Below are positions 17,943 through 61,456 of a DNA stretch of 64,000 nt, one piece after another (the first letter of the stretch is position 1; every line of letters starts with the position of its first letter). A model generated the notes under the pieces. That model did no database searches. It was not told the origin of the DNA and worked only from the letters and a program-made list of their open reading frames with translations. The translations under genes were made by a program, and so were the position numbers. The stretch lies in NCBI GenBank assembly GCA_003569205.1, contig BGOK01000004.1, positions 1 through 64,000 of the forward strand, written 5' to 3'. Source of the DNA: Verrucomicrobiota bacterium (GTDB lineage Bacteria; Verrucomicrobiota; Verrucomicrobiia; Opitutales; UBA953).

Positions 17943-17970
17943 GGTAGGGGCGCGACTGCGTCGCGTCCGT
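17943..17970. repeat. Intergenic hairpin element, CGCGAC type
   Basis: A GGTAGGGG border is followed by the stem CGCGAC (17951-17956), loop TGC and GTCGCG (17960-17965), then TCCGTTCG. An inverted copy of the same type lies at 34010-34041 and a direct one at 54048-54082. See the finding on this repeat family. Confidence 0.75.
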
Positions 17971-18127
17971 TCGCCGAGCTGCGTAGATGGTCGGTGTGTC
18001 CGGCCATGCTCGTCACGGCGTAGCGCCTGCATCACTGCAGCCGCAAACCGCCAACCCCCGGCCACTAGCCGCTATCTACAATAGGTTTTTACTGGGAACC
18101 TGGCGGTCTGAGGCTTGTCTGGAAGGC

Positions 18128-19548
18128 ATGCCCCGTCTTACCCCCCTCCTGTTGTTGGTTTCCGCGCTGGTCCAGGCCGGCGACTTAAAGCTCTCCTCCA
18201 TCTTCTCGGACCACGCCGTCCTGCAGGCCGGTGAGGCCAACGTCTACGGCAAGGCGCAGCCTGGTTCGACGGTCGAAGTCGTCTATGGCGATGTAAAAGC
18301 CACCGCTACCGCGGGTGCCAATGGCATCTTCAAGACGACCCTCACGGGTCTGAAGCCGACCGAAGCTGGTAAGGACCTGGTATTCAAGTCTGGGGCGGAG
18401 TCCCATATCGCCAAAGACGTCATCGTCGGCGAAGTGTGGGTGGGGTCCGGTCAGTCCAATATGGACTGGACTGTCGGTGCCTCCTTTACCGCGAAAGAAT
18501 CCGTCGCCAAGCCGCGCGATAACGGCATCCGCGTCTTCTTTGTCCAGCGCATCCCTGCCACTGCTCCCGTCGAAGACGTCAAGGGTTCCTGGAAAATCGC
18601 TGGCCCTGACACCGTTGCTGGTTTCTCCGCCGCCGCTTATTATTTCGCTTCCACCGTCCGCGCTGAGCTCAAGCAGCCCGTTGGTATGATTGTCACCTCG
18701 ATCGGCGGCACCCGCGCGGAAGCCTGGGGCCCCGCGGCATGTATGATGCGCAGCCGGACGCCAAGGGTTGGCAGGAGAAGGAAGACGCCGCCGTGGCGGC
18801 ACGTGCTGCCAAGGCCAAGGCTGACCCGAAGGCTCAGACGGCCTGGTCCAACGGCCCGCACATGAATTGGAACGGGATGGTGCATCCCCTCATTGGCTAC
18901 AGCTTTAAGGGCGCTATCTGGTACCAAGGCGAGTCCAACGCTGGTCAGGCCGTTGCCTACAAGTGGATCCTCGGCGACATGATTAAGGCTTGGCACAAGG
19001 CCTGGGGCCGCGAATTTCCTTTCATCATTGTCCAACTTCCGCGCTTCATGGCCAAGAAGCCTGTCGCCGTGGAAGACGGTGGCTGGCCAGTCATCCGCGA
19101 GTCCATGGAGTGGATCGCGGACAACGTCCCTGGTGCTATGATGTCGGTCAATATCGACCTCGGCGACGAGAAGGATATTCACCCGAAGGATAAATTCCAG
19201 GTTGGCGATCGTCTCGCGGCGGTGGCCCTCCAACGCGTCTATAAGAGCCGCCCCGACGGTGAAGCCCCGCGCGTGGTGAAGTCCGCGCTCCAAGGCGATG
19301 CCTGGGTGCTCACCTACGACCGGGCCGTCGTCATCAAGGGCGAAGGTAAGGGTTATGCGGTGCAAGGCGCCGACGGTAAGTGGGCCTATGCCACTGCGAA
19401 GGCTGATGGCGCCAAGGTCACCGTTTCCGCCGCAGACGTGAAGGCCCCCAAGGCCGCCCGCTATGCTTGGGCTAATTTTCCAGAAGTCTCTGTTTACTCC
19501 GCTGGCTCCGATGCGCTGCCGGCCGGTCCTTGGCGCAGTGATAAGTGA
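18128..19548 (+). CDS. Sialate O-acetylesterase family protein (one frameshift)
   Basis: About 473 residues if one C is restored in the CCCC tract at 18731-18734, which converts AEAWGP into the family-like AEAWGPRGMYD. The start at 18128 gives a signal peptide (MPRLTPLLLLVSALVQA). The SGNH nucleophile motif GSGQSN is complete, with Ser at about 110. The second block GGTRAEAW and the WYQGESNA block match sialate 9-O-acetylesterase proteins, and DKFQVGDRLA lies near the catalytic His/Asp region. It would remove acetyl groups from sugars in the periplasm. The gene is on the plus strand alone, with repeat DNA upstream. Confidence 0.85.
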
Positions 19549-19564
19549 GGGGGACGGCCGAAGA

Positions 19565-19657
19565 AGAGTACGGAGTCCAGATTACAGAGTACGGAGGACC
19601 GATTGCAGAGGTGGATTAAACCATTCTCTGTAATCAGTACTCTGCACTCCGTACTCT
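19565..19657. repeat. Imperfect long inverted repeat after the acetylesterase gene
   Basis: The 12-base arm AGAGTACGGAGT at 19565-19576 is perfectly complementary to ACTCCGTACTCT at 19646-19657. An inner pair, GATTACAGAG at 19580-19589 and CTCTGTAATC at 19626-19635, is also perfect. A partly similar string (CTCTGTAATCCGCACTCT) recurs at about 54230-54247. It may be a transcript 3'-end structure or a small mobile palindrome. Confidence 0.7.
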
Positions 19658-19667
19658 ATTCGGTTTC

Positions 19668-20369
19668 CTACCCAACCTTCTCCACGCCGGCGCAGTGCAT
19701 TGGCTGGCCGGTCGTGACTTCAAAGGCGTGCGCGGCTTCGGCGGTGGAGAGGCGAGTGCGCAGGGTGTCGGCCCAAGGGTTCACCTCGCTGGAGCGGTCG
19801 CCGGCGGTGTTGGAGAGCTCGCTCAACGTCAGCAGGTAAGCGGCCTCGGTGCAGTTTTCCGTCCAGGTCGTTAGGTCGAAGCACACGTCCCAGAGCCAGA
19901 AGCCGTTCGCATCCTTGAGTTGACCGACCTTGAGCAGGTCGCTTGGGGCTGGCAGGCGTTTGAGGGTAGGGGTGTCGGTGCGGAACGAAACCTTTAGTTG
20001 GGTGCGCTGGCCCGTCAGCGAGGAGACTTCTTGCAGACGTAAGGCTAGCAGGTCCGGATGCTTTTCAGGATCCAAGCGGTCGAGTTGCTCGGGCGAAGCT
20101 GCATCTGTGAAAAGCTGGATGAGGTCAGGGAGTAAGTGCGGGTCATTCTCCGTCGGAGTTTCGCCCATGACCATGAGGTCGTAGATGGCCTCGTGCTTAC
20201 CTGCGCCGTTCAGACGGCGGAGCGGCATCACCCTGGTCACGTGCGGTTCGCGCGGCAGGGACTTCCGAAACCAATGGTCGAACATCCCCGCGAGCCGGTT
20301 CAGGCTGACTTCTTCGGCCTGGGCGGTCGGGTGGAAGGCGCAACGCAGGTACGCGGTGAATGGGTACAT
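19668..20369 (-). CDS. Hypothetical cytosolic protein
   Basis: A 233-residue protein with no signal peptide, membrane helix or recognised motif. It starts MYPFTAYLRCAFHPTAQAEE and contains a helical middle (HPDLLALRLQEVSSLTGQRTQLK) and a C-terminal part with several Trp and Cys residues (FWLWDVCFDLTTWTENC). Codon use resembles the neighbours and the frame is uninterrupted, so it is probably a real gene. It lies downstream of the two MuiA-like genes on the same strand with a gap of about 73 bases. A shared operon is possible. Confidence 0.6.
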   Translation of the reverse strand: MYPFTAYLRCAFHPTAQAEEVSLNRLAGMFDHWFRKSLPREPHVTRVMPLRRLNGAGKHEAIYDLMVMGETPTENDPHLLPDLIQLFTDAASPEQLDRLDPEKHPDLLALRLQEVSSLTGQRTQLKVSFRTDTPTLKRLPAPSDLLKVGQLKDANGFWLWDVCFDLTTWTENCTEAAYLLTLSELSNTAGDRSSEVNPWADTLRTRLSTAEAAHAFEVTTGQPMHCAGVEKVG

Positions 20370-20442
20370 GCCCGAGGACTAGAGCAAAACGCGGCCGATG
20401 GGAAGGATAGAGGCGGGTAGGGCCGCCTGCGGGCAGGGCGGC

Positions 20443-22132
20443 TTAGTAGCCAACCACCTGCATATCTTCTGGGCGTTCGATGGCGAAGCGGTAAGGGACG
20501 TCGAGCTTTTCGCCGGCTTTCACGGCGTGGCGCCATTCCACATACTTCGATTCGTTCATCTTAAGCTCTCGGAGTCCTTCTCATACTTCGGCTCCTCGAG
20601 GACGACCTTGATGTCCTCGTGGTCGCCCATCGGAGTTGGTCCCAGATGACGAGGTCGATCTCCGTAGCCTTGCCGTTCTTTACCTTGAAGACTTGGTCGA
20701 AGACTGTGCGGAGCGTCTTCTTTCCGAAGAGCCCAGAGCTCTCTTCGCGGCGGGCGAGTTCTTTGCGTTCCACGCTGACCGATTGATCAACACCGAGGAA
20801 CGTCCAGAACTTCTGGCCAGCGGGCACGAGGTCCATGCTGGAGTTGGCGACAAAGGCGCCGTCCAAGAACACCGAGGTCCGGCCTGGCAGGAGAGTGAAG
20901 TCAGACTTATTAGTCGCGTGGGTCTTCAGGTAGACGTAGCTCGAGAGCTTCGGGACGCAGCTATGGCGGAAGGTCGAAGGTAACAGCAGGCGCGTCACCG
21001 TGACCTTGGCCATTTTGTTGTCGGACTTGATATCGGTCGTGCGTTCGATGACGAAGGTCGCGGCGGTACCACCGGTGACGACCGAGGCGGTGCTGACAGT
21101 GGCGTCGGCCAGTACGGCCGCTCCCGCCTTGGCAGAAAATTCATTGAATAGATTATTACCAGTGGCCGCCGCGAAGTTCTGCTTTTCGACAGGGATACGA
21201 CCGGCTACGCGGGTTTCGCGGCGAGCATCGCCGTCCTTGTCCTTCCTGAGCGCTTCCAGCTCGACGGGTTCGGACTTGGCGAGGAACCAAGGCGACATCT
21301 CTGGCTCGCGGCCACCGACGCTGGGTTCGGCGGTGGAAAGTTTAAGCGACACGCCTTGCCAGTCTTCGCCGGTCGATTGGCGCAACTCGGCGTGGTAGGT
21401 AATTTCGAGGGACTTGGCCTTGGTGTCGGCTCGGAGGTCGTAGACGGGCTTCCAGCTGGGTCCTTGGACCACGTAACTGAGGCGCACGACGGCGGGACCG
21501 GCGGTCTTCACGTCCAAGTTGACGCGAGCGAGGTTGCGGGAGCGGCTCTGGTTTCCGTTGAGGGCAGCAATCTCGCGGTTGTAGGTGTCGACCTGTTGGC
21601 GTGATGCCTTAATGCGTTTAGCGAGGTCGGTGGCTTCCTTGTCCAAGGCGACCTGTTGCTCGGCTTGGAAGTCGAGGTAGGCGGCCCACTTGAGCGGGTC
21701 CATCTCGGGGTTAGCGGATTCCTTACCCACGGAGGTGAGGCGACCGAGCACCTTCTCGAGGGCGCTGCGACGGAAGGCCACGCGGCCTTCGGCGAGGGAG
21801 AGTTCCTTTTGGACGAGTTCCTGAGCTTGGATTTTGGCCTGTAGGGCGCGGATGGCTTCGTTGGCCACTTCCTTGACCTGCACGGTCTCGGGGCGGATAT
21901 CGATGAGCGTGAAAGCACCGGTGCCTTCGACGCGGATGGACGAGAAGTCGACGTTGGCGGGTAGGTTGTCGAAGAGCAGGGACTGGTCGCCCGCGGCGAG
22001 GTCGCCCTGGAAGATGCGCACCACTTCGGCGCGGTCGGCGTAAACAGTCACCTCGCGCGGCTTGGCGTCGGGTGTGGGGACTTCGGCGGCACCGAGCGTA
22101 GCGGCGAAGCAGAGGAGCGAGAGGGTTTTCAT
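20443..22132 (-). CDS. MuiA-type DUF4140/DUF4139 protein, copy 1 (two frameshifts)
   Basis: About 563 residues when two missing bases are restored, near 20632 (CCC read as CC) and near 20570 (AAA read as AA). The repaired tail DQLPMGDHEDIKVV ... VPYRFAIERPEDMQVVGY then matches the intact neighbour. A signal peptide (MKTLSLLCFAATLGAAEV) precedes the DUF4140 N-terminal domain (TVYADRAEVVR, SLLFDNLPANVD), a coiled-coil (ELSLAEGRVAFRRSALEKVLG) and the DUF4139 beta domain (LSYVVQGPSWKPVYDLRAD, STGEDWQGVSLKLSTAEP). The family is named for a 'mucoidy inhibitor' homologue but its biochemical role is unknown. It lies 34 bases downstream of a paralogue, with which it shares the order of all domains. 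Confidence 0.83.
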
Positions 22133-22166
22133 AGTCTTATAAAAGGGGTTGGGTGTGAGCGGGGGC

Positions 22167-23849
22167 TTATTGGCCGACCATGGGGAAGCCGTCGGGGCGT
22201 TCGATGGCGAAGCGGAAGGGCACGTCCTGCTTGGTGCTGGGCTTAAGCGTCAGGTTCCATTCAACGAATTTCGACTGGTCCACCTTAAAGCCGTCCGTGT
22301 CCTTCTCGTATTTCGGCTCTTCGTAGACGACCTTGATCTCCTCGTGGTTGGAAGAAGGCACTTGGTCGCGGATGGAGAGTTGGACATCGGTGGCCTTGCC
22401 GTTGGTTACCTTGAAGACTTTGCTCACGACGGTGCGGGCGGTCTTCTTGCCGAAGATGCCAGAGAGCTCTTCCACCTTGCCGAGGTCTTTGAGGTCGACC
22501 TTCACCGACTGATCGGCGCCGAGGTAGGTCCAGAATTCCTGGCCAGGGGCAACGAGGTCGAGGTTGGCGTTGGCGACGAAGGCGCCGTCGAGGAAGACGG
22601 CCGTCGGGCCAGCGATGAAGGGGAAGTCGGACTTATTGATAGCCTTGGCCTTGAGGTAGACGTGGGGCGAAAGCTTGGGCACGCAGGTGTGGCGGAATTC
22701 GCTCGGGAAGGATTCGGAAGCGATGGCGACCTTGGCTGGCTTATTGTCGGACGGCACATCGTAGGCGCGCGGAATGGAGAACGTCGCGGCCGTCCCGCCG
22801 GTGTTCACGCGGGCGTAGCTGAAGTCCATCGCGGCGGACGCTGGGGCAGGGGCGGAGGCGCTGAGGGCTGAAAATCTGTTCCTCTCCGAAGAGCCGCGGT
22901 CGGCGCGGTCCAGTTTGGAGGCACTCTCGAGCACAACGCCCCCGGTGACCACCACCGGTGGGGGTACGAAGCGATGGATGAACCATGGGGACATCTGCGG
23001 TTCGCGCCCGCCGAGGTTCGGCTGCGCGGTGGAGAGCTTGAGCGCGACACCTTTCCAGTCTTCGCCGGTCGATTGACGGACCTCGGCGTGGTAGTTGACC
23101 TGGACCGTCTTGGCCTTCGTGTCGGCCCGGATATCATAGAGCGGGTTCCAACTCGGGCCGCGGACGACGTAGGCGAGGTCGAGTTCAATGGGGCCGGCCT
23201 GCTTGGCTTCGATACGCACGCGGGCCACGTTACGGAACTTGAAGCGCTGCGCGTTCAGCTCATTCAGCTCGCGCTGCACGCGATCGAGGTCGAGGGTCAA
23301 GCTGTTGCGGCTGACGCCGTTTGCGAGGATCTCCTGGTCGAGCTTGGCGAGCGTATCCACATGATATTGCAGGTAGGCCGCCCACTTGGACGGGTCCATC
23401 TCGGCGTTAGCGGATTCCTTGCCTACGGAGGTCAGGCGGCCGAGGACTTTCTCCAGGGCGGCCTTGCGTTGGGTGATGCGGTTGTCGGCGAGGGTTAGAT
23501 CGTTGAGTTGGGCACGGAGTGTTTCGAGCTCCTTGGTCAGTTTCAGCACGCGCTCGTCGGCGACCTCCTTCGTCTGGATGCGTTCCCCGCGGATATCGAT
23601 AAGCGTGAAGGCCCCTTTGCCATCGACGCGGACGGACGAAAGGTCGGTCGCTCCAGGAAGGTTCTCAAAGGTCAGCGTATGGTCGCCGGCCTCGATGGTG
23701 GCCGTGAGGTGGCGGACGACTTCGGCGCGATCCCCGTAGACCGTGACGGTGTGGACCTTGGCAGCGGTGGTGGGGATGTCTGCGGCGGCAACACTGAGCG
23801 TCAGGGCGGCCAGCAGGAAGCAGGAAGGGTTGAGCATAGGGATGGGCAT
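22167..23849 (-). CDS. MuiA-type DUF4140/DUF4139 protein, copy 2
   Basis: A 560-residue exported protein. I choose the ATG at 23849, preceded by a GGGGGA Shine-Dalgarno-like string; an in-frame ATG at 23837 begins the signal peptide proper (MLNPSCFLLAALTLSVAAA). Domains follow copy 1: DUF4140 (TVYGDRAEVVRHL, LTFENLPGATDLS), a coiled-coil (AALEKVLGRLTSVGKE), and DUF4139 (LAYVVRGPSWNPLYDIRAD, STGEDWKGVALKLSTAQP), ending VPFRFAIERPDGFPMVGQ. An extra Ala/Ser/Pro-rich insert separates the sheets near the middle. Its function is not known; the tandem arrangement suggests that the two copies form a pair or hetero-oligomer. An array of 11-bp repeats lies just upstream. Confidence 0.87.
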   Translation of the reverse strand: MPIPMLNPSCFLLAALTLSVAAADIPTTAAKVHTVTVYGDRAEVVRHLTATIEAGDHTLTFENLPGATDLSSVRVDGKGAFTLIDIRGERIQTKEVADERVLKLTKELETLRAQLNDLTLADNRITQRKAALEKVLGRLTSVGKESANAEMDPSKWAAYLQYHVDTLAKLDQEILANGVSRNSLTLDLDRVQRELNELNAQRFKFRNVARVRIEAKQAGPIELDLAYVVRGPSWNPLYDIRADTKAKTVQVNYHAEVRQSTGEDWKGVALKLSTAQPNLGGREPQMSPWFIHRFVPPPVVVTGGVVLESASKLDRADRGSSERNRFSALSASAPAPASAAMDFSYARVNTGGTAATFSIPRAYDVPSDNKPAKVAIASESFPSEFRHTCVPKLSPHVYLKAKAINKSDFPFIAGPTAVFLDGAFVANANLDLVAPGQEFWTYLGADQSVKVDLKDLGKVEELSGIFGKKTARTVVSKVFKVTNGKATDVQLSIRDQVPSSNHEEIKVVYEEPKYEKDTDGFKVDQSKFVEWNLTLKPSTKQDVPFRFAIERPDGFPMVGQ

Positions 23850-23900
23850 AGATTGAGCGTCCCCCAAGGCTGGTGCAGTCTAAAAGAATGTGGGGAGGGT

Positions 23901-23988
23901 AGAGTCGGGGCAGAGTCGGGGCAGAGTCGGGGCAGAGTCGGGACAGAGTCGGGGTAGAGTCGGGAGAGGGTCGAGACAGCGTCGGGAG
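23901..23988. repeat. 11-bp tandem repeat array, about 8 copies
   Basis: The unit AGAGTCGGGGC starts at 23901 and recurs every 11 bases, with growing divergence, to about 23988. It sits in the divergent spacer between the MuiA-like and GYF genes, about 50 bases upstream of the MuiA-like start. There are no spacers, so it is not a CRISPR array. The 11-base period is close to one DNA turn. Confidence 0.88.
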
Positions 23989-24085
23989 CATGTCGGAAGG
24001 GCGAAAAGCCGGTGCCTATTTGTAATGCCCACGGGGGCGTGGGGCTTGCTGAACGGGCAGGGGGTGACAAAGTCAGGGCGTCCCC

Positions 24086-24517: not shown

Positions 24518-24544
24518 GGACGCGAGGGGAGAGTCGATCGCGGG

Positions 24545-24592
24545 GTCGATGACTGGGTCGAGGACAGTGTCGATGACTGGGTCGAGGACTGA
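24545..24592. repeat. 24-bp direct repeat, two copies
   Basis: Two adjacent 24-base units, each beginning GTCGATGACTGGGTCGAGGA, occupy 24545-24568 and 24569-24592. Shorter TCGAGG/GTCGAT fragments lie on either side. The unit resembles the GTCG core of the array on the other side of the GYF gene. Confidence 0.75.
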
Positions 24593-24666
24593 ATCGAGGT
24601 GATGGCTTCTGGGCTGCTTACCGCTCGCCGAATAATGTTCGCATCCTCACGTGGGTTCCGCCCGCG

Positions 24667-26660: not shown

Positions 26661-26737
26661 GGCAGGGTCGGCGGCAAAAGTTAAGGGTTATGGTTACCCT
26701 TAAATCCCCCCCTGAAACAAGCATTAACCCCGAGGAA

Positions 26738-26806
26738 AGGGGATACGGATAGGGGGTAGGGGATGGGGTGATAGGGGAAAGGTGATAGGGGATAGGGGAT
26801 GGGGAA
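26738..26806. repeat. G-rich GGGGATA-type tandem array
   Basis: Repeats of GGGGATA, GGGGATG and GGTGATAGGGG units fill most of the 276-base spacer between the divergent aspS gene and the next plus-strand gene. They are like the arrays at 17.83 and 40.38 kb. Confidence 0.78.
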
Positions 26807-26936
26807 ATGAAAAGGGGGACCGGGGGCTGGGTATGAGGGTGGGGCGTGTAGTGCCGGCCTCCTGTCCGGTCTCCGGTCCCCTTTGTTTTAACCGCCATGC
26901 TTCCGATTGCCCTTTTCAAGGTTTTAGATGCCATAG

Positions 26937-34009: not shown

Positions 34010-34041
34010 CGAACGGACGCGACGCAGGTCGCGCCCCTACC
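34010..34041. repeat. Intergenic hairpin element, CGCGAC type, inverted
   Basis: GGACGCGAC-GCAG-GTCGCGCCCCTACC is the inverted counterpart of the element at 17943. It sits in the 100-base gap between the convergent sulfatase and mutarotase-like genes, so it could end transcripts from both sides. Confidence 0.72.
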
Positions 34042-39341: not shown

Positions 39342-40368
39342 TTGGTGGAGGTCAGGAGCTTCGCTTTGATGAAGTCGATTTCTTTCGGGTGCTTCACGTC
39401 GGGTGCGCCAGGGTAGACGAGTTCGCAGGGCACCTTGATTGAGTCGCAGTGTTCTTTGAGCTTCACACCGAAGTTGGCGGAGTGGGTGGCGTCCTTCTCT
39501 TCCTTGCCGATGTTCGGTACCGTTGGGAAATACAGGGCGACCGCGGGGTCATCCTTGGACACGAGTTCATAAGGAGAATATTCCTTAATCCACGGCAGGA
39601 GCCGTTCGCGGGCATCAAAGAATGCCTGGAACGCGGAGATCTTCTTCGTCGTGTCGCCGGTAACGCCAAAGGCATGGGCGCCGTAGCCGCTGTTGGGCGT
39701 CCATTCGCGCATTTGCTTCGGGTCGAGCGAGGTTTGGGGCGAGGAGACTGCGGCGCCGAGTAGGCGGGTCGATTCGCGGGCAATCGGGTCGGCACTCTGC
39801 GGGTCGGCAAGGTCGTCGTGGAAGGCGAGCCAGAGGCTGGTGCAGGCCCCGGCGGAGCCGCCGCTGGCGACCACGCGCGTCTTGTCGAGGTTCCACTCCT
39901 TGGCTTTGCTACGGACGAGCTGGAGGGCACGAGCGCAATCGAGCATCGGTCCCTTGACGGGTGGGACTACGCCATCGGCGGTGGCGTCTTTGATATAGCG
40001 GTACTCCACCGAGACGACGGAGATGCCAGCCTCGAGGCAGGACTTCAGCAGGCCGTTCACGCTGGAGCGGTCGCCATTGGCCCAGCCACCGCCGTGGATG
40101 TAGAAGAGCAGGGGCGTCGGCTTATCGGACTTCGCGCGCCAGAAATACATCACCTGCATGCGGTGTGGGCCGTACGGAATATTCTCGTCGGGCTTCACCA
40201 CGAGCGGCGTCTTAAGGCGTTCGGGATTGCCATCGTTCTGGAAACGCACCGGTGCCTTCTTGGCTTCAGTCTTAGGGCGGCGGCCTTGGGTGCGGCGGGC
40301 GTGTCGGCGGCGAGTAGGGAAGCACAGCCGAGGGAAAGGGCCACGAAAGAGGAGAGCATGGGGTTCAT
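39338..40368 (-). CDS. Exported alpha/beta hydrolase, BD-FAE/esterase-like (one frameshift)
   Basis: About 343 residues when one missing base is restored near 40275, joining the signal peptide start (MNPMLSSFVALSLGCASLLA at 40368) to the frame TEAKKAPVRFQNDG. Core motifs: HGGGWANGD (oxyanion hole), ASGGSAGACTSLWLAF with the nucleophile Ser in GGSAG, and an acid/His end (LVYPGAPDVKHPKEID). These are typical of carboxylesterase/BD-FAE-like enzymes that act on acetylated or feruloylated glycans. The start overlaps the neighbour's stop on the downstream side (ATGA). A G-rich array lies immediately upstream. Confidence 0.8.
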
Positions 40369-40373
40369 GGGAG

Positions 40374-40439
40374 AATAGGGGATTGGGGGACGGGGGTAGG
40401 GGATGGGATATCGGGGGTAGGGGATGGGGGATGGGGGAT
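40374..40439. repeat. G-rich GGGGATA/GGGGTA tandem array
   Basis: A run of AGGGGATTGGGGGACGGGGG, then GTAGGGGATGGG and GGGATGGGGGATGGGGGATT units fills the spacer between two minus-strand esterase genes. Confidence 0.8.
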
Positions 40440-41305
40440 TACTTTTGGGTCAGCGCAGCGAGCAGCGGCTTCAGGCGTTGAGCGTAGGCTTCGTAGCCGG
40501 CGAGGGAAAGGTGGATTTTATCCGGCAGGTAGAGTTCGGCGCGAATCGTGCCATCGGCGTTCAGGAAGTCCTTGGTCAGGTCGAGCACCTTGACCTTGGG
40601 GTCCTGGTCCAAGGCCAGTTTGTCTAGTTCGGCGTTGGTCGCCGCGATGTCTTGATAGAAGCGGTCCTTGGGCGAGTGGCAGGGTAGGATCTTGGCGACG
40701 ATGAGCGTAGCGGCGGGGAATTTCTCGCGGAGGTTCGCGGCACAGGTACGGATGCCTTGAGCGGCGGCGGGTACGCCCGTTTCGGGCGTGAAGAACATGT
40801 TGTTGTTCCCGATCATCAGGACTATGACGGTGGGCTGGAGGCCGGCGACGCCACCGTGGTCCAGGCGCCAGAGCACGTTCTGGGTCTTGTCGCCGCCGAT
40901 CCCGAGGTTGATGGTCTTGAGGTGGCCGAAGTGCTTGAGCCAGGCGGCGTTGGGCCCGGTCTTATCGAGCGGCCCGCCCCATTGCTGCGTGATGGAGTCG
41001 CCAACGAGGAGCACGTCGCAAGGGCCGGCGTTCTTTTGCGCATGAGCGACGAGCTTGCCGTGAACGTCGAGCCAACTGGTGCCGCCCCAATGGCCGGCGG
41101 TGGGCACGCTGGGCCAGTGCTGCGGGAGGTGTTTGTTGACCTCTTTTCCTGGCCGGCGGTCGTGTTCGGGCTTCTCGGTCACGTAGACGCGTTCCGCCGC
41201 GGTGAGCGGCCAGCCGGTCGGTTGCGGATCGGCGGGCGGGTGCGGGTACTCGAGCGCCAAGGCTGTAGCGGCGCCTAGGCAGAGGGCAGCGAGGGTGGGG
41301 AGCAT
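40439..41305 (-). CDS. Exported SGNH/GDSL hydrolase
   Basis: A 288-residue SGNH hydrolase with a signal peptide (MLPTLAALCLGAATALALE). Block I GDSITQQWG has the nucleophile Ser at about 104. Block II is GIGGDKTQNVLWRLDHG, block III VLMIGNNNM, and block V DKIHLSLAGYEAY supplies Asp and His. It resembles PAF-acetylhydrolase-like lipases/acetyl-esterases seen in PVC sulfatase loci. It probably deacetylates sugars in the periplasm. The stop codon lies at the end of a G-rich array and the gene is preceded by a second C-rich one. Confidence 0.88.
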   Translation of the reverse strand: MLPTLAALCLGAATALALEYPHPPADPQPTGWPLTAAERVYVTEKPEHDRRPGKEVNKHLPQHWPSVPTAGHWGGTSWLDVHGKLVAHAQKNAGPCDVLLVGDSITQQWGGPLDKTGPNAAWLKHFGHLKTINLGIGGDKTQNVLWRLDHGGVAGLQPTVIVLMIGNNNMFFTPETGVPAAAQGIRTCAANLREKFPAATLIVAKILPCHSPKDRFYQDIAATNAELDKLALDQDPKVKVLDLTKDFLNADGTIRAELYLPDKIHLSLAGYEAYAQRLKPLLAALTQK

Positions 41306-54047: not shown

Positions 54048-54183
54048 GGTAGGGGCGCGACGGTGTCGCGTCCTTTCGCTGGGAGGTAAGCCCCTGTATC
54101 GAGGTAGGGTTGGCACTGCGTGCCAACCTAGCGGCATCCCAGTCCCAAAGACGGCTAGGTCGGTACGTAGTCCCGACCCTACC
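54048..54183. repeat. Composite intergenic hairpin cluster (three stems)
   Basis: Stem A is CGCGAC-GGT-GTCGCG (54057-54070) behind GGTAGGGG. Stem B is GGTTGGCAC-TGC-GTGCCAACC within 54109-54130, bordered by GAGGTAG and CTAGCGGCATC. Stem C is GGTCGGTAC-GTA-GTCCCGACC, with one mismatch, followed by CTACC. Versions of B and C recur at 61168-61329. The cluster occupies most of the 340-base gap between MFS and SGNH genes; no gene is visible in it. A CTCTGTAATCCGCACTCT string follows at 54230. Confidence 0.8.
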
Positions 54184-55044: not shown

Positions 55045-55150
55045 GGTGGGGTGACTTAAATGCAGGAGAAACGCCCGGCCCTGTAAAGGGGGAAAGCGAC
55101 CTCGCCGTTGTCCCCTTGCCAAAGAGGCCGCTGTTTCTACTTTTTGTGGC

Positions 55151-55597
55151 ATGCCCAACGTCCCCGGACTCCGTAGCCCCTATGAAGCCGTGCGCGGCTT
55201 CGTCTATCTCCCGCGCCTGCTCGATAAGCTTCGCCTGCATGCCCACGGAGCGCTGCATGCCGACTTCGTTAATAACCTGGGCAAGGCTTTTGATGACCGT
55301 TGCTGTCAGTACCTAGGGATTAAGTATGACGAACTTCGTATCTGGGTGCTGGGTAACCCGGCCGTGACCGATGAGGAAGTCATGGTCTGGGCCGAAGCCC
55401 GGGGCCGTCAGCTCACCACGAACGACATCGAGATTTGGAACGGTTTTATGACTAAGCGTGGTTGGCGCGACGAAGCCAACGAGGTGCTCGTGCGGCGCCT
55501 CAAGGAGAATCAACTCGGGCCTGAGGCCGGTGTGGACACCATGTTTGACTATATCGAGGTCGATGAGGGTCGCCCGGCCCGTCGGCAGGCACTCTGA
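55151..55597 (+). CDS. DUF5069 domain protein
   Basis: A 148-residue cytosolic protein with the DUF5069 pattern (GLRSPYEAVRGFVYLPRLLD, KLRLHAHGALHADFVNN, GKAFDDRCCQYLGIKYDEL). The rest carries GNPAVTDEEVMVWAEARG and a short C-terminal segment. The family is of unknown function and frequent in PVC bacteria. It is divergent from the SGNH gene, with about 106 bases between starts. No cofactor motif is visible. Confidence 0.9.
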   Translation: MPNVPGLRSPYEAVRGFVYLPRLLDKLRLHAHGALHADFVNNLGKAFDDRCCQYLGIKYDELRIWVLGNPAVTDEEVMVWAEARGRQLTTNDIEIWNGFMTKRGWRDEANEVLVRRLKENQLGPEAGVDTMFDYIEVDEGRPARRQAL

Positions 55598-55759
55598 GTG
55601 GTGGTTGAGGATTGAGTTGGGGCGGCCGATTCCTATAAATCATAGAAGTCGACTGGACTGCCCTTGGCGGATTAGTCGCCTTCCTCTTCGCGTGCTTGCC
55701 CCTTGTTCCATCCCTTCGCCTGTTTCAGGCCACGCCGTGGCGGCTAGAGAGGTGGGCAC

Positions 55760-56251
55760 ATGCTGACGTTAGACGTTATTTTAGCGGATGTTGCCGTCGA
55801 AGCGGTCAAGGCCGTCAAGGACCCGAATGCGGTGACCAATAACTTTCAGGGCGCGATTCTTGCGTTCAAAAAGGGTGGCTGGATCGTCTCCCTGATTGGT
55901 GCCGCCGCGATGGTTGGCCGTTTACTCATCGACGATGCCGCGGACGCCAATTGGCGTCGTTCTGCGAAGCACATCCTCGCTGCCGCCCTCTTTGCTATTA
56001 TCGCTTTCTTCGTCACCTACCAGTGGGAGATGTCCGCGATCAATAAGGCCATCATCCAAGGCCTGACCGGCGCGCTGGCGCCCGAGCTCGTCGACTGGAT
56101 TTCCGCCACCATTAAGTCCAAGCTCGGCATCAAGGACAAGAAGTCCAAGGGCCGTGGCCGCAAGCGTTCCTCCGGACGTAAGCGTTCCAAACCCAAGAAT
56201 CCAGACGCCGCTGTCCCGCCCCCCAAGCCCTCTCGGCGTAAACCACGCTGA
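55760..56251 (+). CDS. Small membrane protein, holin-like, with basic tail
   Basis: A 163-residue protein. An N-terminal stretch (VAVEAVKAVKDPNAVTNNFQ) is followed by two or three hydrophobic segments: KKGGWIVSLIGAAAMVGRLL and SAKHILAAALFAIIAFFVTY, then IIQGLTGALAPELVDWISA. The spacing and the GLTGALAPELVDWI ending are reminiscent of phage holins. A strongly basic C-terminal tail (KKSKGRGRKRSSGRKRSKPK and beyond) is also a holin feature but not proof. No endolysin or other phage gene lies beside it. It is 163 bases downstream of DUF5069 and 28 bases ahead of another small membrane protein. Confidence 0.6.
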   Translation: MLTLDVILADVAVEAVKAVKDPNAVTNNFQGAILAFKKGGWIVSLIGAAAMVGRLLIDDAADANWRRSAKHILAAALFAIIAFFVTYQWEMSAINKAIIQGLTGALAPELVDWISATIKSKLGIKDKKSKGRGRKRSSGRKRSKPKNPDAAVPPPKPSRRKPR

Positions 56252-56279
56252 ACCCCTTTACTATGAAACCCACCCAACT

Positions 56280-56732
56280 ATGAGTGCCACCCGTTCCAGA
56301 CGTCGAACCGCCAAGACTGGCCTAGTGCAGGCCGAAGCCGGCATCGTCGGCATGACCGTGGTGACGCTCCTCGTCTCCCTCGCCGGCCTTTGGTTCAGCC
56401 ATGAGCTCAAGGACACCACCGAGCGCGTCCGCGGTGCCACCGTCAACATCCAGTCCTCCGTCGATGCCTACAAGAAGGCGATGAAGTCGACCGAGACGGC
56501 TGTTGTTCTGATCACGGACGAGGGCACGAAGTCGGATAATAAGAAGGTCGAGGAGACCGCCAACAAGGCCACCGCGGCGCTCATCAACGCCGAGCGCGAT
56601 ACCAAGGATTGCATCACCTTGCTCGATCAGGTCCTGAAACTGCTCTCCACCTATGAGACGACGACGGTGACCTTCGCGGGCTGTTCGCTGATCTTTGCGC
56701 TCTTCGTTATCATCCGCCAATTTAAGCTCTAG
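56280..56732 (+). CDS. Small two-TM protein with coiled-coil middle
   Basis: A 150-residue protein. I use the ATG at 56280, because the longer frame begins inside the previous gene. Helix 1 lies at about residues 22-40 (IVGMTVVTLLVSLAGLWFSH), then a coiled-coil-like stretch (ELKDTTERVRGATVNIQSSV to ERDTKDCITLLDQVLKLLST), and a second helix at the C-terminus (TVTFAGCSLIFALFVIIRQF). The pair with the holin-like gene could act together. It resembles no named family. Its stop overlaps the convergent thiL stop region by 11 bases. Confidence 0.6.
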   Translation: MSATRSRRRTAKTGLVQAEAGIVGMTVVTLLVSLAGLWFSHELKDTTERVRGATVNIQSSVDAYKKAMKSTETAVVLITDEGTKSDNKKVEETANKATAALINAERDTKDCITLLDQVLKLLSTYETTTVTFAGCSLIFALFVIIRQFKL

Positions 56733-57711
56733 CGGTCGAGCCGAGGGCTTCACCCGAAGTGACTGAACCCTTGGCTTTGATGGGCTGCTGGTCGGCGGCG
56801 TCGCAGAGCCGTCCCGAGCCCTTGGCAATGGTGCCGATGGCGGTTAGCGGGGTGCCTGGGAAGGTTTTAGTAAAGGTCGCCGCGATAAAGTCGGCCTGCT
56901 CGGCGCGCACGGTGAAGAGGAGTTCGTAGTCCTCGCCATCCTGCAGGGCGTGTTCGAGGGCCGGCTTGCCGTCCAGGCGAGCGAGCTTGGTGGCGGCTTC
57001 GGAAATCGGTAACTTCTTAAGGTCTACGAGTCCGTCCAGTTTGGGGCCGAGTAGGCCGGGTAGGTCCTTGCCGAGGCCATCAGAGAGGTCCGTACAAGCA
57101 GTGACGGCGCCTTGGGCACAGAGCCATTCGCCTTCGGCCAGACGAGCCTTGAAGTTAAGGTGTTGTCCGTAGATCGAGCCACCGAGGTGACCGGTCACAA
57201 AGAGCACGTCGCCGACTTGCGCGGTGCGACGGGTGAGCACCCGGTAGGCGAAGCCTTGGACAGCGAGGGTCGCGCTGAAGGTGCCCGGGGCGGTGCGGCA
57301 GACGTCTCCACCGACGAGCTTGAGGCCGGCTTGAGCAGCTGCGCGGCCGGCGCCATGGGCAAAGTCTTCGAGCCATTTAGCTTCGACGTCCGGACCCATT
57401 AGAATCGAGAGCAAGGCATCGCCAGGCGTGGCGCCCGCGGCGGCGAGGTCGCTGAGGTTACGTTGGACGAGCTTGGCGCCGGCTTTCTCGCCAGGGCATG
57501 AGAGGTCGAAGTGTCTTCCGAAGACGACGGAGTCGATGGTGGCAACGCGGAAGGGACGTTCTTGCGTGGCCGGGAAGATGGCGCAGTCGCCCCCAGGTCC
57601 AGCGGGAAAGGCTGGGCAGGCGTCGGCCAAGGTAGCGACAAAACGGTCGATGATTTCGCCTTCGGTCAACTTACCGACGCTAAGTTCGCTTTGCTTCGTG
57701 AAGACGCCCAT
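56722..57711 (-). CDS. thiL: Thiamine-monophosphate kinase
   Basis: A 329-residue ThiL, the cytosolic enzyme that phosphorylates thiamine monophosphate to thiamine diphosphate. It belongs to the AIR synthase-like fold. Motifs: GDCAIFPATQERPFRVATID at the N-terminus for the metal/ATP site, GAKLVQRNLSDLAAAGATPG, LKLVGGDVCRTAPG and TDLSDGLGKDLPGLLG, then ALQDGEDYELLFTV. Length is normal for ThiL. No other thiamine gene is next to it, and the CPBP protease gene is upstream on the same strand. Its 3' end overlaps the convergent small membrane protein gene. Confidence 0.93.
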   Translation of the reverse strand: MGVFTKQSELSVGKLTEGEIIDRFVATLADACPAFPAGPGGDCAIFPATQERPFRVATIDSVVFGRHFDLSCPGEKAGAKLVQRNLSDLAAAGATPGDALLSILMGPDVEAKWLEDFAHGAGRAAAQAGLKLVGGDVCRTAPGTFSATLAVQGFAYRVLTRRTAQVGDVLFVTGHLGGSIYGQHLNFKARLAEGEWLCAQGAVTACTDLSDGLGKDLPGLLGPKLDGLVDLKKLPISEAATKLARLDGKPALEHALQDGEDYELLFTVRAEQADFIAATFTKTFPGTPLTAIGTIAKGSGRLCDAADQQPIKAKGSVTSGEALGSTARA

Positions 57712-57781
57712 GGTGCAACCTTGATGGAGGCATTTCCGTCCGTCCGCAACCCTCCGCTCAAGGAAACGCGTGGACCGCCAC

Positions 57782-58714
57782 CTAGAACTGCGTCGAGGCG
57801 TTGGGCGCGATGTTGAGCCAGATGAAGGTCACGAAGTTAAAGAGCATGTGGATACCGATGCAGGTCAGCAGGCCATAGCGGTCACGGAAGATACACTGCA
57901 CGGCACCAAAGGCGGCGAGGGGCAGGAAGGCGGAGAGGCTGCCGTGGATGAGGGCGAAGACCACGCCGGTCAGGACGATGGCATAACCACGCGGTAGCCA
58001 GCCCTTGAGTAGCGGATAGAACATGCCGCGGAAGGCGAGCTCCTCGGCAATGGGGGCACCAATGACGATGGAAAGTCCGAAGACTAGAATGGGCGCCCAG
58101 GGGCCGGACCAATCGTAGTCTACTACCATCTTGACGACGGTCTGGGGTTCGTCGGGTAAGACCTGTCCCTGGAGTTCGCAGAAATAGTAGAAGAGTCTCC
58201 AGATCAACCCGGCGGCAATTGTTAGCGCGATAATCGACAGGTAAGTTTTGAGCAAGGTGCTCACGTGGAAGGCCCGCCCCGCTAAACGGATTTCATCCAT
58301 GCCGTCGGTCGGTTCCGAGGGCGGAGCTTCGCCAGCGGTGCTCGCGCTGGGGGCCCAATGGACGGTGCCGGGGGCAGCCAAGGTAAAGACGATGAGCGTC
58401 AGTGCGGCCAGCCCTTGGCCAGTCAGGCCCATCACGGCTTGAGCGAGCATGCCAGCCCCGAAGAGGCTAGCCGTACTGCCCAGGATGAGGGCAGCCCCCG
58501 CCATGCAGACGAGGAAGATGATAATCGGCGCCGGCGAGAGGAGGAACGTCACGACCTGCACGACCCACCTCGGCAGGTTGGAACTGAAGACCTTGCGCGG
58601 GTGGTCCACCGCAGGATGGGCGAGGTCACGCGTCAAGTACCAGACACCCGCTAGTGTCGTGGCTAGCATCCAGGCGATGAAGAGGTAGTCGCGCCAGCCG
58701 AGGGGCGTATCCAT
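57782..58714 (-). CDS. CPBP family intramembrane metalloprotease
   Basis: A 310-residue integral membrane protein with about eight helices. The CPBP/Abi signature is complete: APIAEELAFRGMFYPLLKG with the EE..R motif, then FALIHGSLSAFLPLAAFG with the catalytic His, and IHMLFNFVTFIW. Such proteins act as CAAX-type or other intramembrane peptidases, sometimes linked to bacteriocin or quorum functions. No partner is indicated. The dihydroorotase-like stop lies one base upstream, so the gene is in that operon. Confidence 0.9.
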   Translation of the reverse strand: MDTPLGWRDYLFIAWMLATTLAGVWYLTRDLAHPAVDHPRKVFSSNLPRWVVQVVTFLLSPAPIIIFLVCMAGAALILGSTASLFGAGMLAQAVMGLTGQGLAALTLIVFTLAAPGTVHWAPSASTAGEAPPSEPTDGMDEIRLAGRAFHVSTLLKTYLSIIALTIAAGLIWRLFYYFCELQGQVLPDEPQTVVKMVVDYDWSGPWAPILVFGLSIVIGAPIAEELAFRGMFYPLLKGWLPRGYAIVLTGVVFALIHGSLSAFLPLAAFGAVQCIFRDRYGLLTCIGIHMLFNFVTFIWLNIAPNASTQF

Positions 58715-60025
58715 TTACTTGGACGGTTGGCCGTCCTTGGTGACGAGCTTACCACCCACGAACGTCGAGCGGATGCGAGCCTTGAGGGTCCGGCCGAGGA
58801 GAGGGTTATTGCCCGACTTCGAAAGCAAGGTCTTCGCCGAAGGCTTCCAAGTCGCCTTAGGGTCAATGAGTACGATGTCGGCGAGGCCGCCGATACGGAG
58901 CGTGCCTGCATCGAGGCCCAGCGCACGCGCGGGTCCACAGGTCAGGCGCTGCAGGAGAAGCGTCAGGTCGGCATGGCCATCGGCGACGATGGCTCGTAGG
59001 GTGGCAGAAAAGGCCGTTTCAAGGGTGGCCGCACCAAAGGGAGCGAGGTCGAACTCACAGTCCTTCTCAGTCGCTGTGCAGGGCGAATGATCAGAACAGA
59101 TGGCGTCAATCGTCCCGTCGACGAGCGCGGCGATGAGCGCTTGGCGGTCGGCTTCTTCGCGCAGGGGCGGGTTGAGCTTCAGGTGGGTGTCGTATTGGGC
59201 CAACGCGGCGTCGGTGAGGAGCAGGTGGAGCGCAGACACCTCGGCGGTGACGGAGGCCTGAGCGGCCTTGGCACGGCGCACGATCTCGGCGGAGCCACCA
59301 GAGGACAGGTGCTGCAAGTGGATGCGGGCCTTGGTGAGGCCAGCGAGGACGCAGTCGCTCGAGACGACGATTTCTTCGGCGGCACGCGGGTAGCCACGGA
59401 GGCCGAGGCGAAGGGACCAAGCGCCTTCATGCATCTGCGCACCGTCGGTCATGCTGCTGTCCTGACAATGGTCGAGCACGACGAGGTCGAACATCGCCGC
59501 ATACTCGAGCGCACGACGCATAATCTCGTTATTCTGCACGCCAGAGGTGGTGTCAGTCACGGCGACGACGCCCGCCTTCTTGAGCGAGCCAATCGGCGCG
59601 AGGGCCTTGCCTTCATGGCCCTTGGTCAGAGTGCCCGCGGGGAGCACGCGGACGGAGGCGTCGCGGTCGCAGAGTTCACGGATGAGTTGTATCGTGCCAA
59701 CATTGTCCGCCGCCGGGAGGCAGTCGGGCATGATGACGACGGACGTGAAACCACCGGCGGCAGCCGCGAGGGTGCCGGCCCGGATGCTTTCGCGCGCGCC
59801 GAGGCCCGGTTCTCCGAGGCGGCAGTTGAGGTCCACGAAACCTGGGGCGAGGATGAGCCCCGCGGCATCGATGACTTGGGCGCGAGCTTGGTCTGACTTC
59901 GAGAGCTTGTCGACGAAGCGGCCATCCTTGGCGAAGACCTCGCCGCGGGCGTCGTCGCGGCCGACGGACGGGTCGATCACGCGGGCGCCGCGGATCCAGA
60001 GGGGGGTGTGTTCGTCAGTATTCAT
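58715..60025 (-). CDS. pyrC: Dihydroorotase-like protein lacking the HxH motif (pDHO type)
   Basis: A 436-residue amidohydrolase-fold protein next to pyrB. Where active enzymes read DLHVHLREPG, this one reads DLNCRLGEPG at residues 65-74: both metal-binding His and the substrate-binding Arg are replaced (N67, R69, G71). Other family blocks are kept: LDHCQDSSMTDGAQMHEGAW, HLQHLSSGGSAEIVRRAKA, CSDHSPCTATEKDCEFDLAP. It is therefore probably non-catalytic, comparable to the pseudo-dihydroorotases that partner ATCase in Pseudomonas. It overlaps pyrB by four bases, which fits a structural role in the ATCase complex. A true PyrC must be elsewhere. Confidence 0.9.
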   Translation of the reverse strand: MNTDEHTPLWIRGARVIDPSVGRDDARGEVFAKDGRFVDKLSKSDQARAQVIDAAGLILAPGFVDLNCRLGEPGLGARESIRAGTLAAAAGGFTSVVIMPDCLPAADNVGTIQLIRELCDRDASVRVLPAGTLTKGHEGKALAPIGSLKKAGVVAVTDTTSGVQNNEIMRRALEYAAMFDLVVLDHCQDSSMTDGAQMHEGAWSLRLGLRGYPRAAEEIVVSSDCVLAGLTKARIHLQHLSSGGSAEIVRRAKAAQASVTAEVSALHLLLTDAALAQYDTHLKLNPPLREEADRQALIAALVDGTIDAICSDHSPCTATEKDCEFDLAPFGAATLETAFSATLRAIVADGHADLTLLLQRLTCGPARALGLDAGTLRIGGLADIVLIDPKATWKPSAKTLLSKSGNNPLLGRTLKARIRSTFVGGKLVTKDGQPSK

Positions 60026-60963
60026 CGGGCGATGGCTCCGGTGCAGAGGTGAAGGACGGCCATGCGGACGGCGACGCCGTTACGGACTTGCTCGAGGATG
60101 ACCGAGCGGGGGCCGTCAGCGACTTCGCTTTCGACTTCCACGCCGCGGTTAATCGGACCGGGGTGCATGACGATGGCCTCGGGCTTGAGCCAGGCGGCGC
60201 GTTCGGCGTTGAGGCCGAACTGCGACGTGTATTCGCCGAGGGAAGGGAAGTGGGTGGTTGTCTGCCGCTCGTGCTGGATGCGCAGGAGCATCACGGCATC
60301 GGCACCCGAGAGGGCCTTCTTGAGGTCGTGCACGATGCGGACCTGTGGGTAGGCTTCTTTTAACGTGGCGGGGACGAGGGTGGCGGGTCCGGCGAGGGTG
60401 ACCTCGGCGCCGAGCTTGGTGAGGCAGAGGATATTCGAGCGGGCCACCCGGCTGAAGAGGATGTCGCCGAGGATGGTGATTTTGAGCCCTTGAACCTTGC
60501 CGAAGCGTTGGCGGATGGTGAAAGCATCGAGCAAGGCCTGCGTCGGGTGCTCGTGGGCGCCGTCGCCGGCATTGACCACGGAGATGTCGAGCGCCTTACC
60601 GAGGTAGCGGGCGGCCCCGGCCGAGGAGTGGCGCATGACGATCGCGTCTACGCCCATGGCGCGGATGTTCATGGCCGTGTCGCGGAGGGTTTCGCCCTTT
60701 ACCAAGGAGGAGGCCGTGGTGTTGATGGAGACCACTTCAGCCCCGAGCTTTTTGGCTGAGATTTCGAAAGCTGTGCGGGTGCGCGTGCTGGGCTCGAGGA
60801 AGAGGTTCACCACCGTCCGACCACGCATCAGGTCGAGCCCCTTGCCGGGCGCGAGGGCGGGCAGGAAGCGGTCGGCCTGGCGGAAAAGGAATTCGATCTC
60901 GGCTCGGGAGAGTTCCTCGATGCCCGTGAGGTCTTTTTTCGTCCAGGATTCTTGTTTGGCCAT
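60022..60963 (-). CDS. pyrB: Aspartate carbamoyltransferase catalytic subunit
   Basis: A 313-residue ATCase, the first committed step of pyrimidine synthesis, joining carbamoyl phosphate to aspartate. The start is the ATG at 60963 (MAKQESWTKKDLTGIEELSR). The carbamoyl-phosphate motif PSTRTRTAFE lies at 58-67. HEHPTQALLDAFTIR and VMHPGPINRGVEVESEVADG are the other family blocks, so the active site is intact. No pyrI-type regulatory subunit is present; the pseudo-dihydroorotase that overlaps its 3' end by four bases probably replaces it as a structural partner. The next 493 bases upstream hold only repeats. Confidence 0.97.
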   Translation of the reverse strand: MAKQESWTKKDLTGIEELSRAEIEFLFRQADRFLPALAPGKGLDLMRGRTVVNLFLEPSTRTRTAFEISAKKLGAEVVSINTTASSLVKGETLRDTAMNIRAMGVDAIVMRHSSAGAARYLGKALDISVVNAGDGAHEHPTQALLDAFTIRQRFGKVQGLKITILGDILFSRVARSNILCLTKLGAEVTLAGPATLVPATLKEAYPQVRIVHDLKKALSGADAVMLLRIQHERQTTTHFPSLGEYTSQFGLNAERAAWLKPEAIVMHPGPINRGVEVESEVADGPRSVILEQVRNGVAVRMAVLHLCTGAIAR

Positions 60964-61456
60964 GCTGGGTAGGTGCGTGGCCCCAACGAAGTTAGGACCA
61001 TTGGGAAAGTGCGGAGGGGGAGGGGGTTGGCAAGAAGGAAAGGGGGCGCCAGAGGGGGCAGTGCAAAGGTGCAAAACGGCCTACGGCCTGTGCAAACGTG
61101 CAAAAGTTTGCGGGAAGGGGCGAGACTGGGTTGGGGGATTGCTTGGTTCGTCGTTCTATGCCTCCTGCATCGAGGTAGGGTTGGCACTGCGTGCCAACCT
61201 AGTTGCATCTTAAGGTTGGGGCGTGGCTTCGCCGCGCCCTCCCCCGCAGGAGTGCAAGGCAAAGCCTTGCCCCTACCGAGTTCGCCCTGCGGCGAACTCC
61301 TAGGTCGGTACGCAGTCCCGACCCTACCGAGGCAGTGGATGGCACGAAAAGAAATTCGCGACTTCATCCCGTCACTTCCGCTCCCTTGATCGAGCGCTTT
61401 GCACTTTTCCACTTTTGCACCTTTGCACGTGCTCTTGCCCATCCCCTCCCTCTTGG
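60964..61456. other. Repeat-filled intergenic region between pyrB and trpA
   Basis: No gene is supported in these 493 bases. A 16-base inverted pair (GTGCAAAGGTGCAAAA at 61061-61076, its complement at 61413-61428) brackets the hairpin cluster at 61168-61329. The arms may be part of a larger mobile or folded unit. Confidence 0.6.
61168..61329. repeat. Composite intergenic hairpin cluster (four to five stems)
   Basis: Stem 1 is GGTTGGCAC-TGC-GTGCCAACC within 61177-61200. Stem 2 is GGGCGTGGC-TTC-GCCGCGCCC and stem 3 GCAAGGC-AAA-GCCTTGC, both within 61215-61277; these are the inverted counterparts of the pair at 24667. Stem 4, GAGTTCGCC-CTGC-GGCGAACTC, is at 61278-61299. Stem 5 is GGTCGGTAC-GCA-GTCCCGACC, with one mismatch, followed by CTACC. 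Confidence 0.82.

What the first reader, a model, noticed from the sequence alone, without database searches (positions are those of the whole stretch)
17943..61329. Intergenic hairpins with the same borders but different self-complementary stems
At least five sites (17943, 24667, 34010, 54048, 61168) carry short palindromes bordered by GGTAGGG or CCTACC. Stems differ between types: CGCGAC/GTCGCG, GGTTGGCAC/GTGCCAACC, GGTCGGTAC/GTCCCGACC, GGACAGCAC/GTGCTGTCC, GCAAGGC/GCCTTGC. Pairing is kept nearly perfect even though the sequence changes, which argues for selection on structure. Several stems are stacked in one cluster and the same set recurs in inverted order at 24.7 and 61.2 kb. REP/MITE-like palindromes are known in bacteria; a modular family with interchangeable stems is less usual. 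They could be transcript ends, protein-binding sites or small mobile units.
Basis: partly seen in the sequence, partly recalled or inferred. Interest (0 to 1): 0.72.

Follow-up and report, generated by a model that had tools for sequence, protein, structure and literature searches.

The report
REP hairpins paired to sister-species transposases
These intergenic hairpins look like REP elements, short repeats made of a fixed GTAG tag and a 9-base-pair stem; related species carry small transposase genes bracketed by such hairpins, which would explain why the borders stay fixed while the stems change.

Summary
The hairpins are real: 12 at five sites between genes. In 452,812 bases of the same genome, 65 of 141 GGTAGGG words run straight into a hairpin; 19 of 20 control words gave 0-7%, the other (18%) overlaps the motif. 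One plan: GTAG tag, 9-bp stem, 2-4 nt loop. They fit GTAG-type REPs. In sister species of the genus I found short REP-associated tyrosine transposase (RAYT) genes; 49 of 51 loci examined carry such hairpins within 220 bp. Hairpin loop type follows the RAYT tree with the fewest changes possible. Four stems of the window occur beside sister RAYTs; two do not. The window's own 85%-complete draft shows no short RAYT. 'Same border, different stem' is thus known REP biology. Less expected: inverted REP pairs near RAYTs often share tag and apical loop but hardly ever the middle of the stem (1 of 92 pairs). Heterodimers are in print without explanation (PMC3733652). I file this as a new member of a known kind. 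Mobilisation by RAYT is inferred, not shown.

The parts
17943..17968 (+). REP, stem GGGCGCGAC/GTCGCGTCC, loop TGC; between a YjdM/PhnA-domain gene (ends 17824) and the next gene
   Evidence: the same stem flanks sister RAYTs L096 and L098
24667..24692 (+). REP, stem GGGCAAGGC/GCCTTGCAC (one mismatch), loop TTC; left half of an inverted pair, downstream of aspS
   Evidence: the stem arm flanks sister RAYT L083
24706..24731 (-). REP, stem GGGCGTGGC/GCCGCGCCC, loop TTC; right half of the same pair
   Evidence: the stem arm flanks sister RAYTs L083 and L094
24746..24771 (-). REP, stem GGACAGCAC/GTGCTGTCC, loop GGC
   Evidence: the stem (with loop CAC) flanks the 7 sister RAYTs of one cluster
34015..34041 (-). 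REP, stem GGGCGCGAC/GTCGCGTCC, 4-nt loop CTGC; between a sulfatase gene (ends 33943) and a convergent ORF without Pfam match
54048..54073 (+). REP, stem GGGCGCGAC/GTCGCGTCC, loop GGT
54103..54128 (+). REP, stem GGTTGGCAC/GTGCCAACC, loop TGC, tail TAG; left half of an inverted pair
54158..54183 (-). REP, stem GGTCGGGAC/GTACCGACC (one mismatch), loop TAC, tail TAG; right half of the pair
61174..61199 (+). REP, stem GGTTGGCAC/GTGCCAACC, loop TGC; in the pyrB-trpA spacer
61214..61239 (+). REP with degenerate tag GGTTG, stem GGGCGTGGC/GCCGCGCCC, loop TTC
   Evidence: tag intact (GGTAG) in sister G025
61252..61277 (-). REP, stem GGGCAAGGC/GCCTTGCAC (one mismatch), loop TTT; with 61214-61239 an inverted pair nested inside the outer pair
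61303..61328 (-). REP, stem GGTCGGGAC/GTACCGACC (one mismatch), loop TGC; right half of the outer pair

Best explanation
The hairpins are GTAG-type REP elements. Each is a GTAG tag abutting a 9-bp stem with a short loop, recognised as folded single-stranded DNA by a small HUH/Y1 transposase (RAYT). The RAYT reads the tag and the apex of the hairpin and needs the stem to be paired, but tolerates many stem sequences; that is why borders are fixed and stems vary by double-sided changes. Different RAYT lineages in the genus carry different apex/stem classes, and the window holds REPs of at least three classes (four stems) that sit beside RAYTs in sister species. Shown: hairpins above chance, one architecture, bracketing of short RAYT genes in sister genomes, loop type following the RAYT tree, patchy presence at the two spacers compared. 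Inferred: RAYT binding, cleavage and spreading, and why partners in a pair differ in mid-stem (perhaps so that each REP can fold by itself rather than as one long inverted repeat). The window's genome may have lost its RAYT, or the gene may be missing from the draft.
For: 65 of 141 GGTAGGG with an adjoining hairpin against 0-6.8% for 19 of 20 control words. 32 chosen hairpins: 85 cells changed on both sides against 24.5 in shuffles, and 1-13 when the pairing is slid. 49 of 51 short-RAYT loci in sister genomes have a hairpin within 220 bp, 40 of the 46 with both flanks at hand have one on each side, against 133 of 2000 random 884-bp windows of the own sample. RAYT pairs at 70% identity or more share a flanking stem in 65 of 66 cases, at 60-70% in 7 of 8, under 60% in 17 of 1007. 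Loop type on the RAYT tree: 17 states and 16 changes, or 16 and 15 with ties broken the other way, the minimum each time; 200 shuffles gave 31 or more. The RAYT profile matches the solved TnpA-REP chain 4er8_A, E 1.6e-15. 40 of 72 own-sample elements have a 5' stem arm seen beside a sister RAYT. 61 of 71 own elements lie outside called ORFs, though called ORFs cover 88% of the sample. Published enzymology of group 3 TnpA-REP (PMC8266576, sections 19, 22, part of 23).
Against: No short RAYT was found in the window's own genome, so no REPtron is shown there. 2 of 51 short-RAYT loci (L113, L114) have no such hairpin. GGTTGGCAC, joint commonest stem in the own sample, and GGTCGGGAC flank no RAYT that I examined. 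No exact insertion border was recovered; the spacers change too fast. Genomes with many REPs but no detected short RAYT exist (G000, G031, G017, G020). The short RAYTs are weak members of the NCBIfam model: 1 of 7 passes its cut-off.
Confidence: 0.9

Rival explanations
1. They are transcription terminators or mRNA 3'-end stabilisers kept by selection on RNA structure; the RAYT link is incidental.
For: Mostly intergenic; 26 of 68 placed elements lie between convergent genes, against 70 of 370 background gene pairs. Stems are G+C-rich.
Against: No run of four T within 12 nt after either end of the 12 window hairpins; 22 of 68 lie between divergent genes, against 68 of 370 background pairs; the GTAG tag is one-sided and fixed; loop type tracks RAYT lineage. 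A secondary role in RNA is not excluded.
Confidence: 0.08
2. Paired stems are kept by a mutational mechanism (hairpin-templated correction during replication), not by selection or by RAYT demand.
For: Would give double-sided changes without intermediates, as perhaps at the pyrB-trpA spacer, where the same tail follows two stems that differ in three adjacent pairs.
Against: Does not explain the fixed tag and loop, the tie of loop type to RAYT clade or the bracketing of RAYT genes. It could act in addition.
Confidence: 0.12
3. They are ends or remnants of another mobile element (a MITE of an unrelated transposase).
For: High copy number, patchy presence at orthologous spacers.
Against: Single units of about 24-26 nt with a one-sided GTAG tag; bracketing of short RAYTs. 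Other transposase classes were not searched for.
Confidence: 0.03

Closest known systems
GTAG-type REPs of Stenotrophomonas (classes SM1-SM13) with their RAYTs (PMC3686654, outline, abstract and section 6 seen)
   Same: GT(A/G)G tag directly abutting 8-9 perfectly paired bases; several RAYT-linked classes with different stems in one genus; REPs mostly as inverted doublets
   Different: Another phylum; here inverted REPs near a RAYT usually differ in mid-stem; the window's own draft genome shows no short RAYT; some stems here hold one mismatch
GTAG repeats of Opitutus terrae (PMC3733652; abstract, sections 5, 14, 16 and passages seen)
   Same: Also a verrucomicrobium; several GTAG families in one genome; dimers
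   Different: The figure with the O. terrae consensus sequences is not held, so stems could not be compared; spacers of 1-2 bp are reported there for GTAG-17 HH and GTAG-19 TT dimers, against 12-98 bp in the 19 own-sample dimers (gaps up to 100 bp were allowed)
Group 3 TnpA-REP/REP duos (S. maltophilia, Marinomonas; PMC8266576; abstract, sections 19, 22 and part 1 of 2 of section 23 seen)
   Same: Perfect palindrome after GTAG; enzyme depends on loop and pairing more than on most stem positions
   Different: Not assayed here; which RAYT group the Opitutae genes belong to was not tested
REPINs of Pseudomonas fluorescens (PMC3116915, search listing and start of abstract only; the rest recalled)
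   Same: Two inverted REPs as the likely mobile unit
   Different: As recalled, partners there are alike; here they mostly are not

Membership tests
GTAG-type REP element | 5' GT(A/G)G tag at the foot of a short palindrome | tested here: met
   11 of 12 window elements have GTAG, one has GTTG; 9-bp stem adjoining
GTAG-type REP element | high copy number in one genome | tested here: met
   111 matches at E<=5e-4 in the own genome, a lower bound because 140 of 1338 candidates were scored
GTAG-type REP element | extragenic | tested here: met
   61 of 71 outside called ORFs in the own sample; ORF calling was heuristic and the 71 include a few likely chance hairpins
REPtron in the window's own genome | RAYT gene bracketed by its REPs | tested here: not met
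   No short RAYT in the 85% complete draft, and the one long-type Y1 gene has no hairpin in its 3.3 kb locus; I do not file the window's genome as holding a REPtron
RAYT (sister-genome genes) | HUH motif and catalytic Tyr of Y1 transposases | tested here: met
   MPDHxH and a Tyr invariant in 7 of 7; NCBIfam REP_Tyr_transpos hit in 7 of 7, above its cut-off in 1 of 7; two long-type proteins hit it too, more weakly
RAYT (sister-genome genes) | REPs flank the gene | tested here: met
   49 of 51 short-type loci; on both sides in 40 of 46 with both flanks at hand; 4 further fragments were not fetched
REP mobilised by RAYT | cleavage and strand transfer of folded single-stranded REP | not testable with these tools
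   needs protein
REP mobilised by RAYT | clean empty sites | tested here: inconclusive
   No element in 33 of 37 pyrB-trpA spacers nor in 3 of 3 relatives with a whole aspS spacer, but spacers diverge too much to show exact borders

The most novel reading that the evidence does not exclude
The genus uses a two-part REP code: tag plus apical loop is what the RAYT reads, while the middle of the stem is free and is kept different between the two partners of an inverted pair, so that each REP can fold alone instead of forming one long inverted repeat. Mid-stems can then be exchanged in place: at the pyrB-trpA spacer the same 14-nt tail follows stem GGTTGGCAC in two genomes and GGACAGCAC in four.
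Probability: 0.35. Interest if true: 0.6.

Novelty: new member of a known kind. Interest (0 to 1): 0.4.

Why it matters
One genus of (by record titles) lake Opitutae gives 17 RAYT clusters at 60% identity, 16 of them with flanking hairpins: a natural set for asking how a single-strand transposase and its target change specificity together. It also offers a test of a published point left without explanation: why REP pairs tend to be heterodimers (PMC3733652).

Tried and rejected
Rfam at gathering scores gave only two tRNAs in the window. The own genome's only PF01797 gene (C8:89259) was first taken for the RAYT; it is split into two ORFs and belongs to a long kind (about 250-340 aa in sisters), none of whose 10 sister loci looked at is bracketed by hairpins, so I dropped it as the mobiliser. 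Orthologous-region searches at own contigs C7 and C8 gave rearranged neighbourhoods with many elements and no clean empty site. In the own sample alone the 'different mid-stem' pattern is not significant: 0 of 18 outward-tagged pairs against 1.8 expected, shared apex 5 of 18 against 3.8 expected; it rests on the RAYT loci, where rows are related. By RAYT cluster: 13 of 17 have an outward-tagged pair; mid-stem the same in 1 of 13, apex the same in 6 of 13. One search used 32 hairpins picked by hand from 83 distinct ones: three-base loop, GGTAGGG start, 8 or more of 9 pairs; so its 97.6% paired and its fixed GG are largely built in, and only the double-sided changes carry weight. Folding: both hairpins form locally in the best fold of 33 of 76 native pairs and of 0 of 76 model homodimers; so most native pairs still prefer a long imperfect hairpin, which weakens the separate-folding idea. 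Loop label on the tree: one search gave 17 changes with ties broken at random and the number of states not printed; two searches gave states minus one. I found no paper on these REPs; that rests on the searches in an open-licence library. The RepRanger paper (PMC12306157, passages) has neither 'verrucomicrob' nor 'opitut' in its main text. PMC6006769 (passages) reports Y1 subclasses without REPs (2.1, 2.3); whether the long kind belongs there was not tested.

Full report
What is there. The window is the first 64,000 bases of contig C4 of a 2.23 Mb, 85% complete draft genome. Records holding relatives of its Y1 gene at 58% identity or more are titled Opitutae, Opitutia, Opitutus or Verrucomicrobia, one Akkermansia, all but one marked as metagenome assemblies; that the host is a lake Opitutae is inferred from those titles. 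At the five cited sites I count 12 hairpins. All follow one plan: GGTAG, a 9-bp stem that starts GG, a loop of 3-4 nt here (2-4 elsewhere), the second arm. In 452,812 bases of the genome (window plus 20 fetched stretches), 65 of 141 GGTAGGG are followed at once by a hairpin. Of 20 distinct control words 19 gave 0 to 6.8%; GGGTAGG gave 19 of 105 because it overlaps the motif. A covariance model built from 32 chosen hairpins, 22 of own and 10 of relatives, finds 111 in the whole genome at E 5e-4 or better, a lower bound because 140 of 1338 candidates were scored.

Structure. In the 32 hairpins, 85 cells are changed on both sides against 24.5 in shuffles, and 1 to 13 when the partner column is slid. 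The sample was chosen for pairing and for the GGTAGGG start, so the percentage paired and the fixed first pairs prove little; the double-sided changes do speak for a kept stem. The middle of the stem varies most.

Place. With a heuristic ORF call, 88% of the sample is coding, yet 61 of 71 elements lie outside called ORFs; of the ten inside, at least the two in the window lie in an over-long ORF start. In the window they lie beside a YjdM gene, downstream of aspS, between a sulfatase gene and a convergent ORF, between a GDSL lipase and an MFS gene, and between trpA and pyrB.

The mobiliser. The own genome has one PF01797 gene, of a long kind (here split into two ORFs) that is not bracketed by hairpins in 10 sister loci either. 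In a search of 57 genomes, own included, a second, short kind appeared. A profile of seven of these found 55 short-type matches, fragments included, in 28 of 55 same-genus genomes, and none in the own genome. I examined 51 of the 55 with flanks; 49 have GTAG/9-bp hairpins within 220 bp, and 40 of the 46 with both flanks at hand have them on both sides. A few of the 51 are incomplete or hold a stop. Random 884-bp windows of the own sample hold a hairpin in 133 of 2000 cases. The profile matches TnpA-REP in the PDB (4er8_A, E 1.6e-15; that this is the E. coli protein is recalled).

Specificity. Among the 47 flanked RAYTs of 130 aa or more, pairs at 70% identity or more share a flanking stem in 65 of 66 cases, at 60-70% in 7 of 8, under 60% in 17 of 1007. 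On a tree of 49 RAYTs, 47 of them labelled, the commonest flanking loop has 17 states and 16 changes, or 16 and 15 with ties broken the other way, the minimum each time; 200 shuffles gave 31 or more. Stem label: 22 states, 22 changes, shuffles 32 or more. The window's stems GGGCGCGAC, GGACAGCAC, GGGCAAGGC and GGGCGTGGC occur beside sister RAYTs, the last two as partners of one pair; GGTTGGCAC and GGTCGGGAC do not. Of 72 own-sample elements 40 have a stem arm seen beside a sister RAYT.

Pairs. Among 92 neighbouring inverted pairs in the 53 fetched Y1 loci (65 tags out, 27 tags in), 49 share apex (two pairs plus loop) against 5.6 expected, and 1 shares the middle five pairs against 4.1 expected; among the 49 that share apex, 1 shares the middle against 18.4 expected. 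Rows are related; by RAYT cluster the middle is the same in 1 of 13, the apex in 6 of 13. In the own sample alone it is not significant. Published work reports heterodimers and says their preference has no obvious explanation, while suggesting protection from clearance (PMC3733652 section 14). Folding gives weak support to a separate-folding idea: 33 of 76 native pairs, 0 of 76 model homodimers.

Turnover. At the pyrB-trpA spacer 33 of 37 genomes examined, own included, have no element (G025 and G032 were looked at apart, and the contig of G031 ends before the spacer). The 14-nt tail TAGTTGCATCTTAA occurs once in the own sample. In that spacer it follows GGTTGGCAC in own and G025, and GGACAGCAC in G022, G032, G017 and G009. 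The split does not follow pyrB likeness to own (G022 94.7%, G025 92.3%), and the sequence before the tag differs between the two groups, so in-place exchange of the stem is a suggestion only. At the aspS spacer the three elements are absent in G031, G022 and G032, but no exact border can be drawn.

Reach. The model hits 52 of 55 same-genus genomes, own included. Of 35 genomes drawn from the order, which include the own genome and one sister (G063), only the own genome and one genome of another family (G053, 6 hits, two of them around a Y1 match) match. REPs of other classes would not match this model: G063 has none by it, yet carries a bracketed RAYT (L100).

Known or new. Tag, 8-9 bp perfect stem, RAYT linkage, several classes per genus and different classes beside orthologous RAYTs are all reported for Stenotrophomonas (PMC3686654 section 6). 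In vitro, group 3 enzymes tolerate many stem swaps but not lost pairing or changed key loop positions (PMC8266576). So this is a new member of a known kind. The part worth a specialist's time is the size of the set and the rule for pairs. RAYT action, spread and function in the host are inferred.

Noticed in passing
17820-17890, 26729-26844, 40354-40455: Intergenic tandem runs of GGGGATAGGGGATGG type; other simple-sequence runs (TCGAGGACAG, GTACAGAGTACAG) fill the aspS spacer of own and sister genomes and differ between them.
   Followed up: no
20561-22132 (-), 22167-23867 (-): Two neighbouring paralogues with DUF4140 and DUF4139 domains.
   Followed up: partly
L009:1453-2366 (own contig C8): Long-type Y1 transposase gene split into two ORFs of 171 and 136 aa; relatives of up to 96% identity in Opitutae drafts; no REP hairpin in its 3.3 kb locus.
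   Followed up: partly
20416-20447 (+): GGTAGGG followed by an imperfect hairpin that does not fit the 9-bp GG/CC plan.
   Followed up: no
61200-61213: Tail TAGTTGCATCTTAA follows two different stems in sister genomes at the same spacer.
   Followed up: partly
   Followed up: no
G053:C65 4965-5661: A likely REPtron in another family of the order: model hits on both sides of a Y1 match with one stop inside.
   Followed up: no
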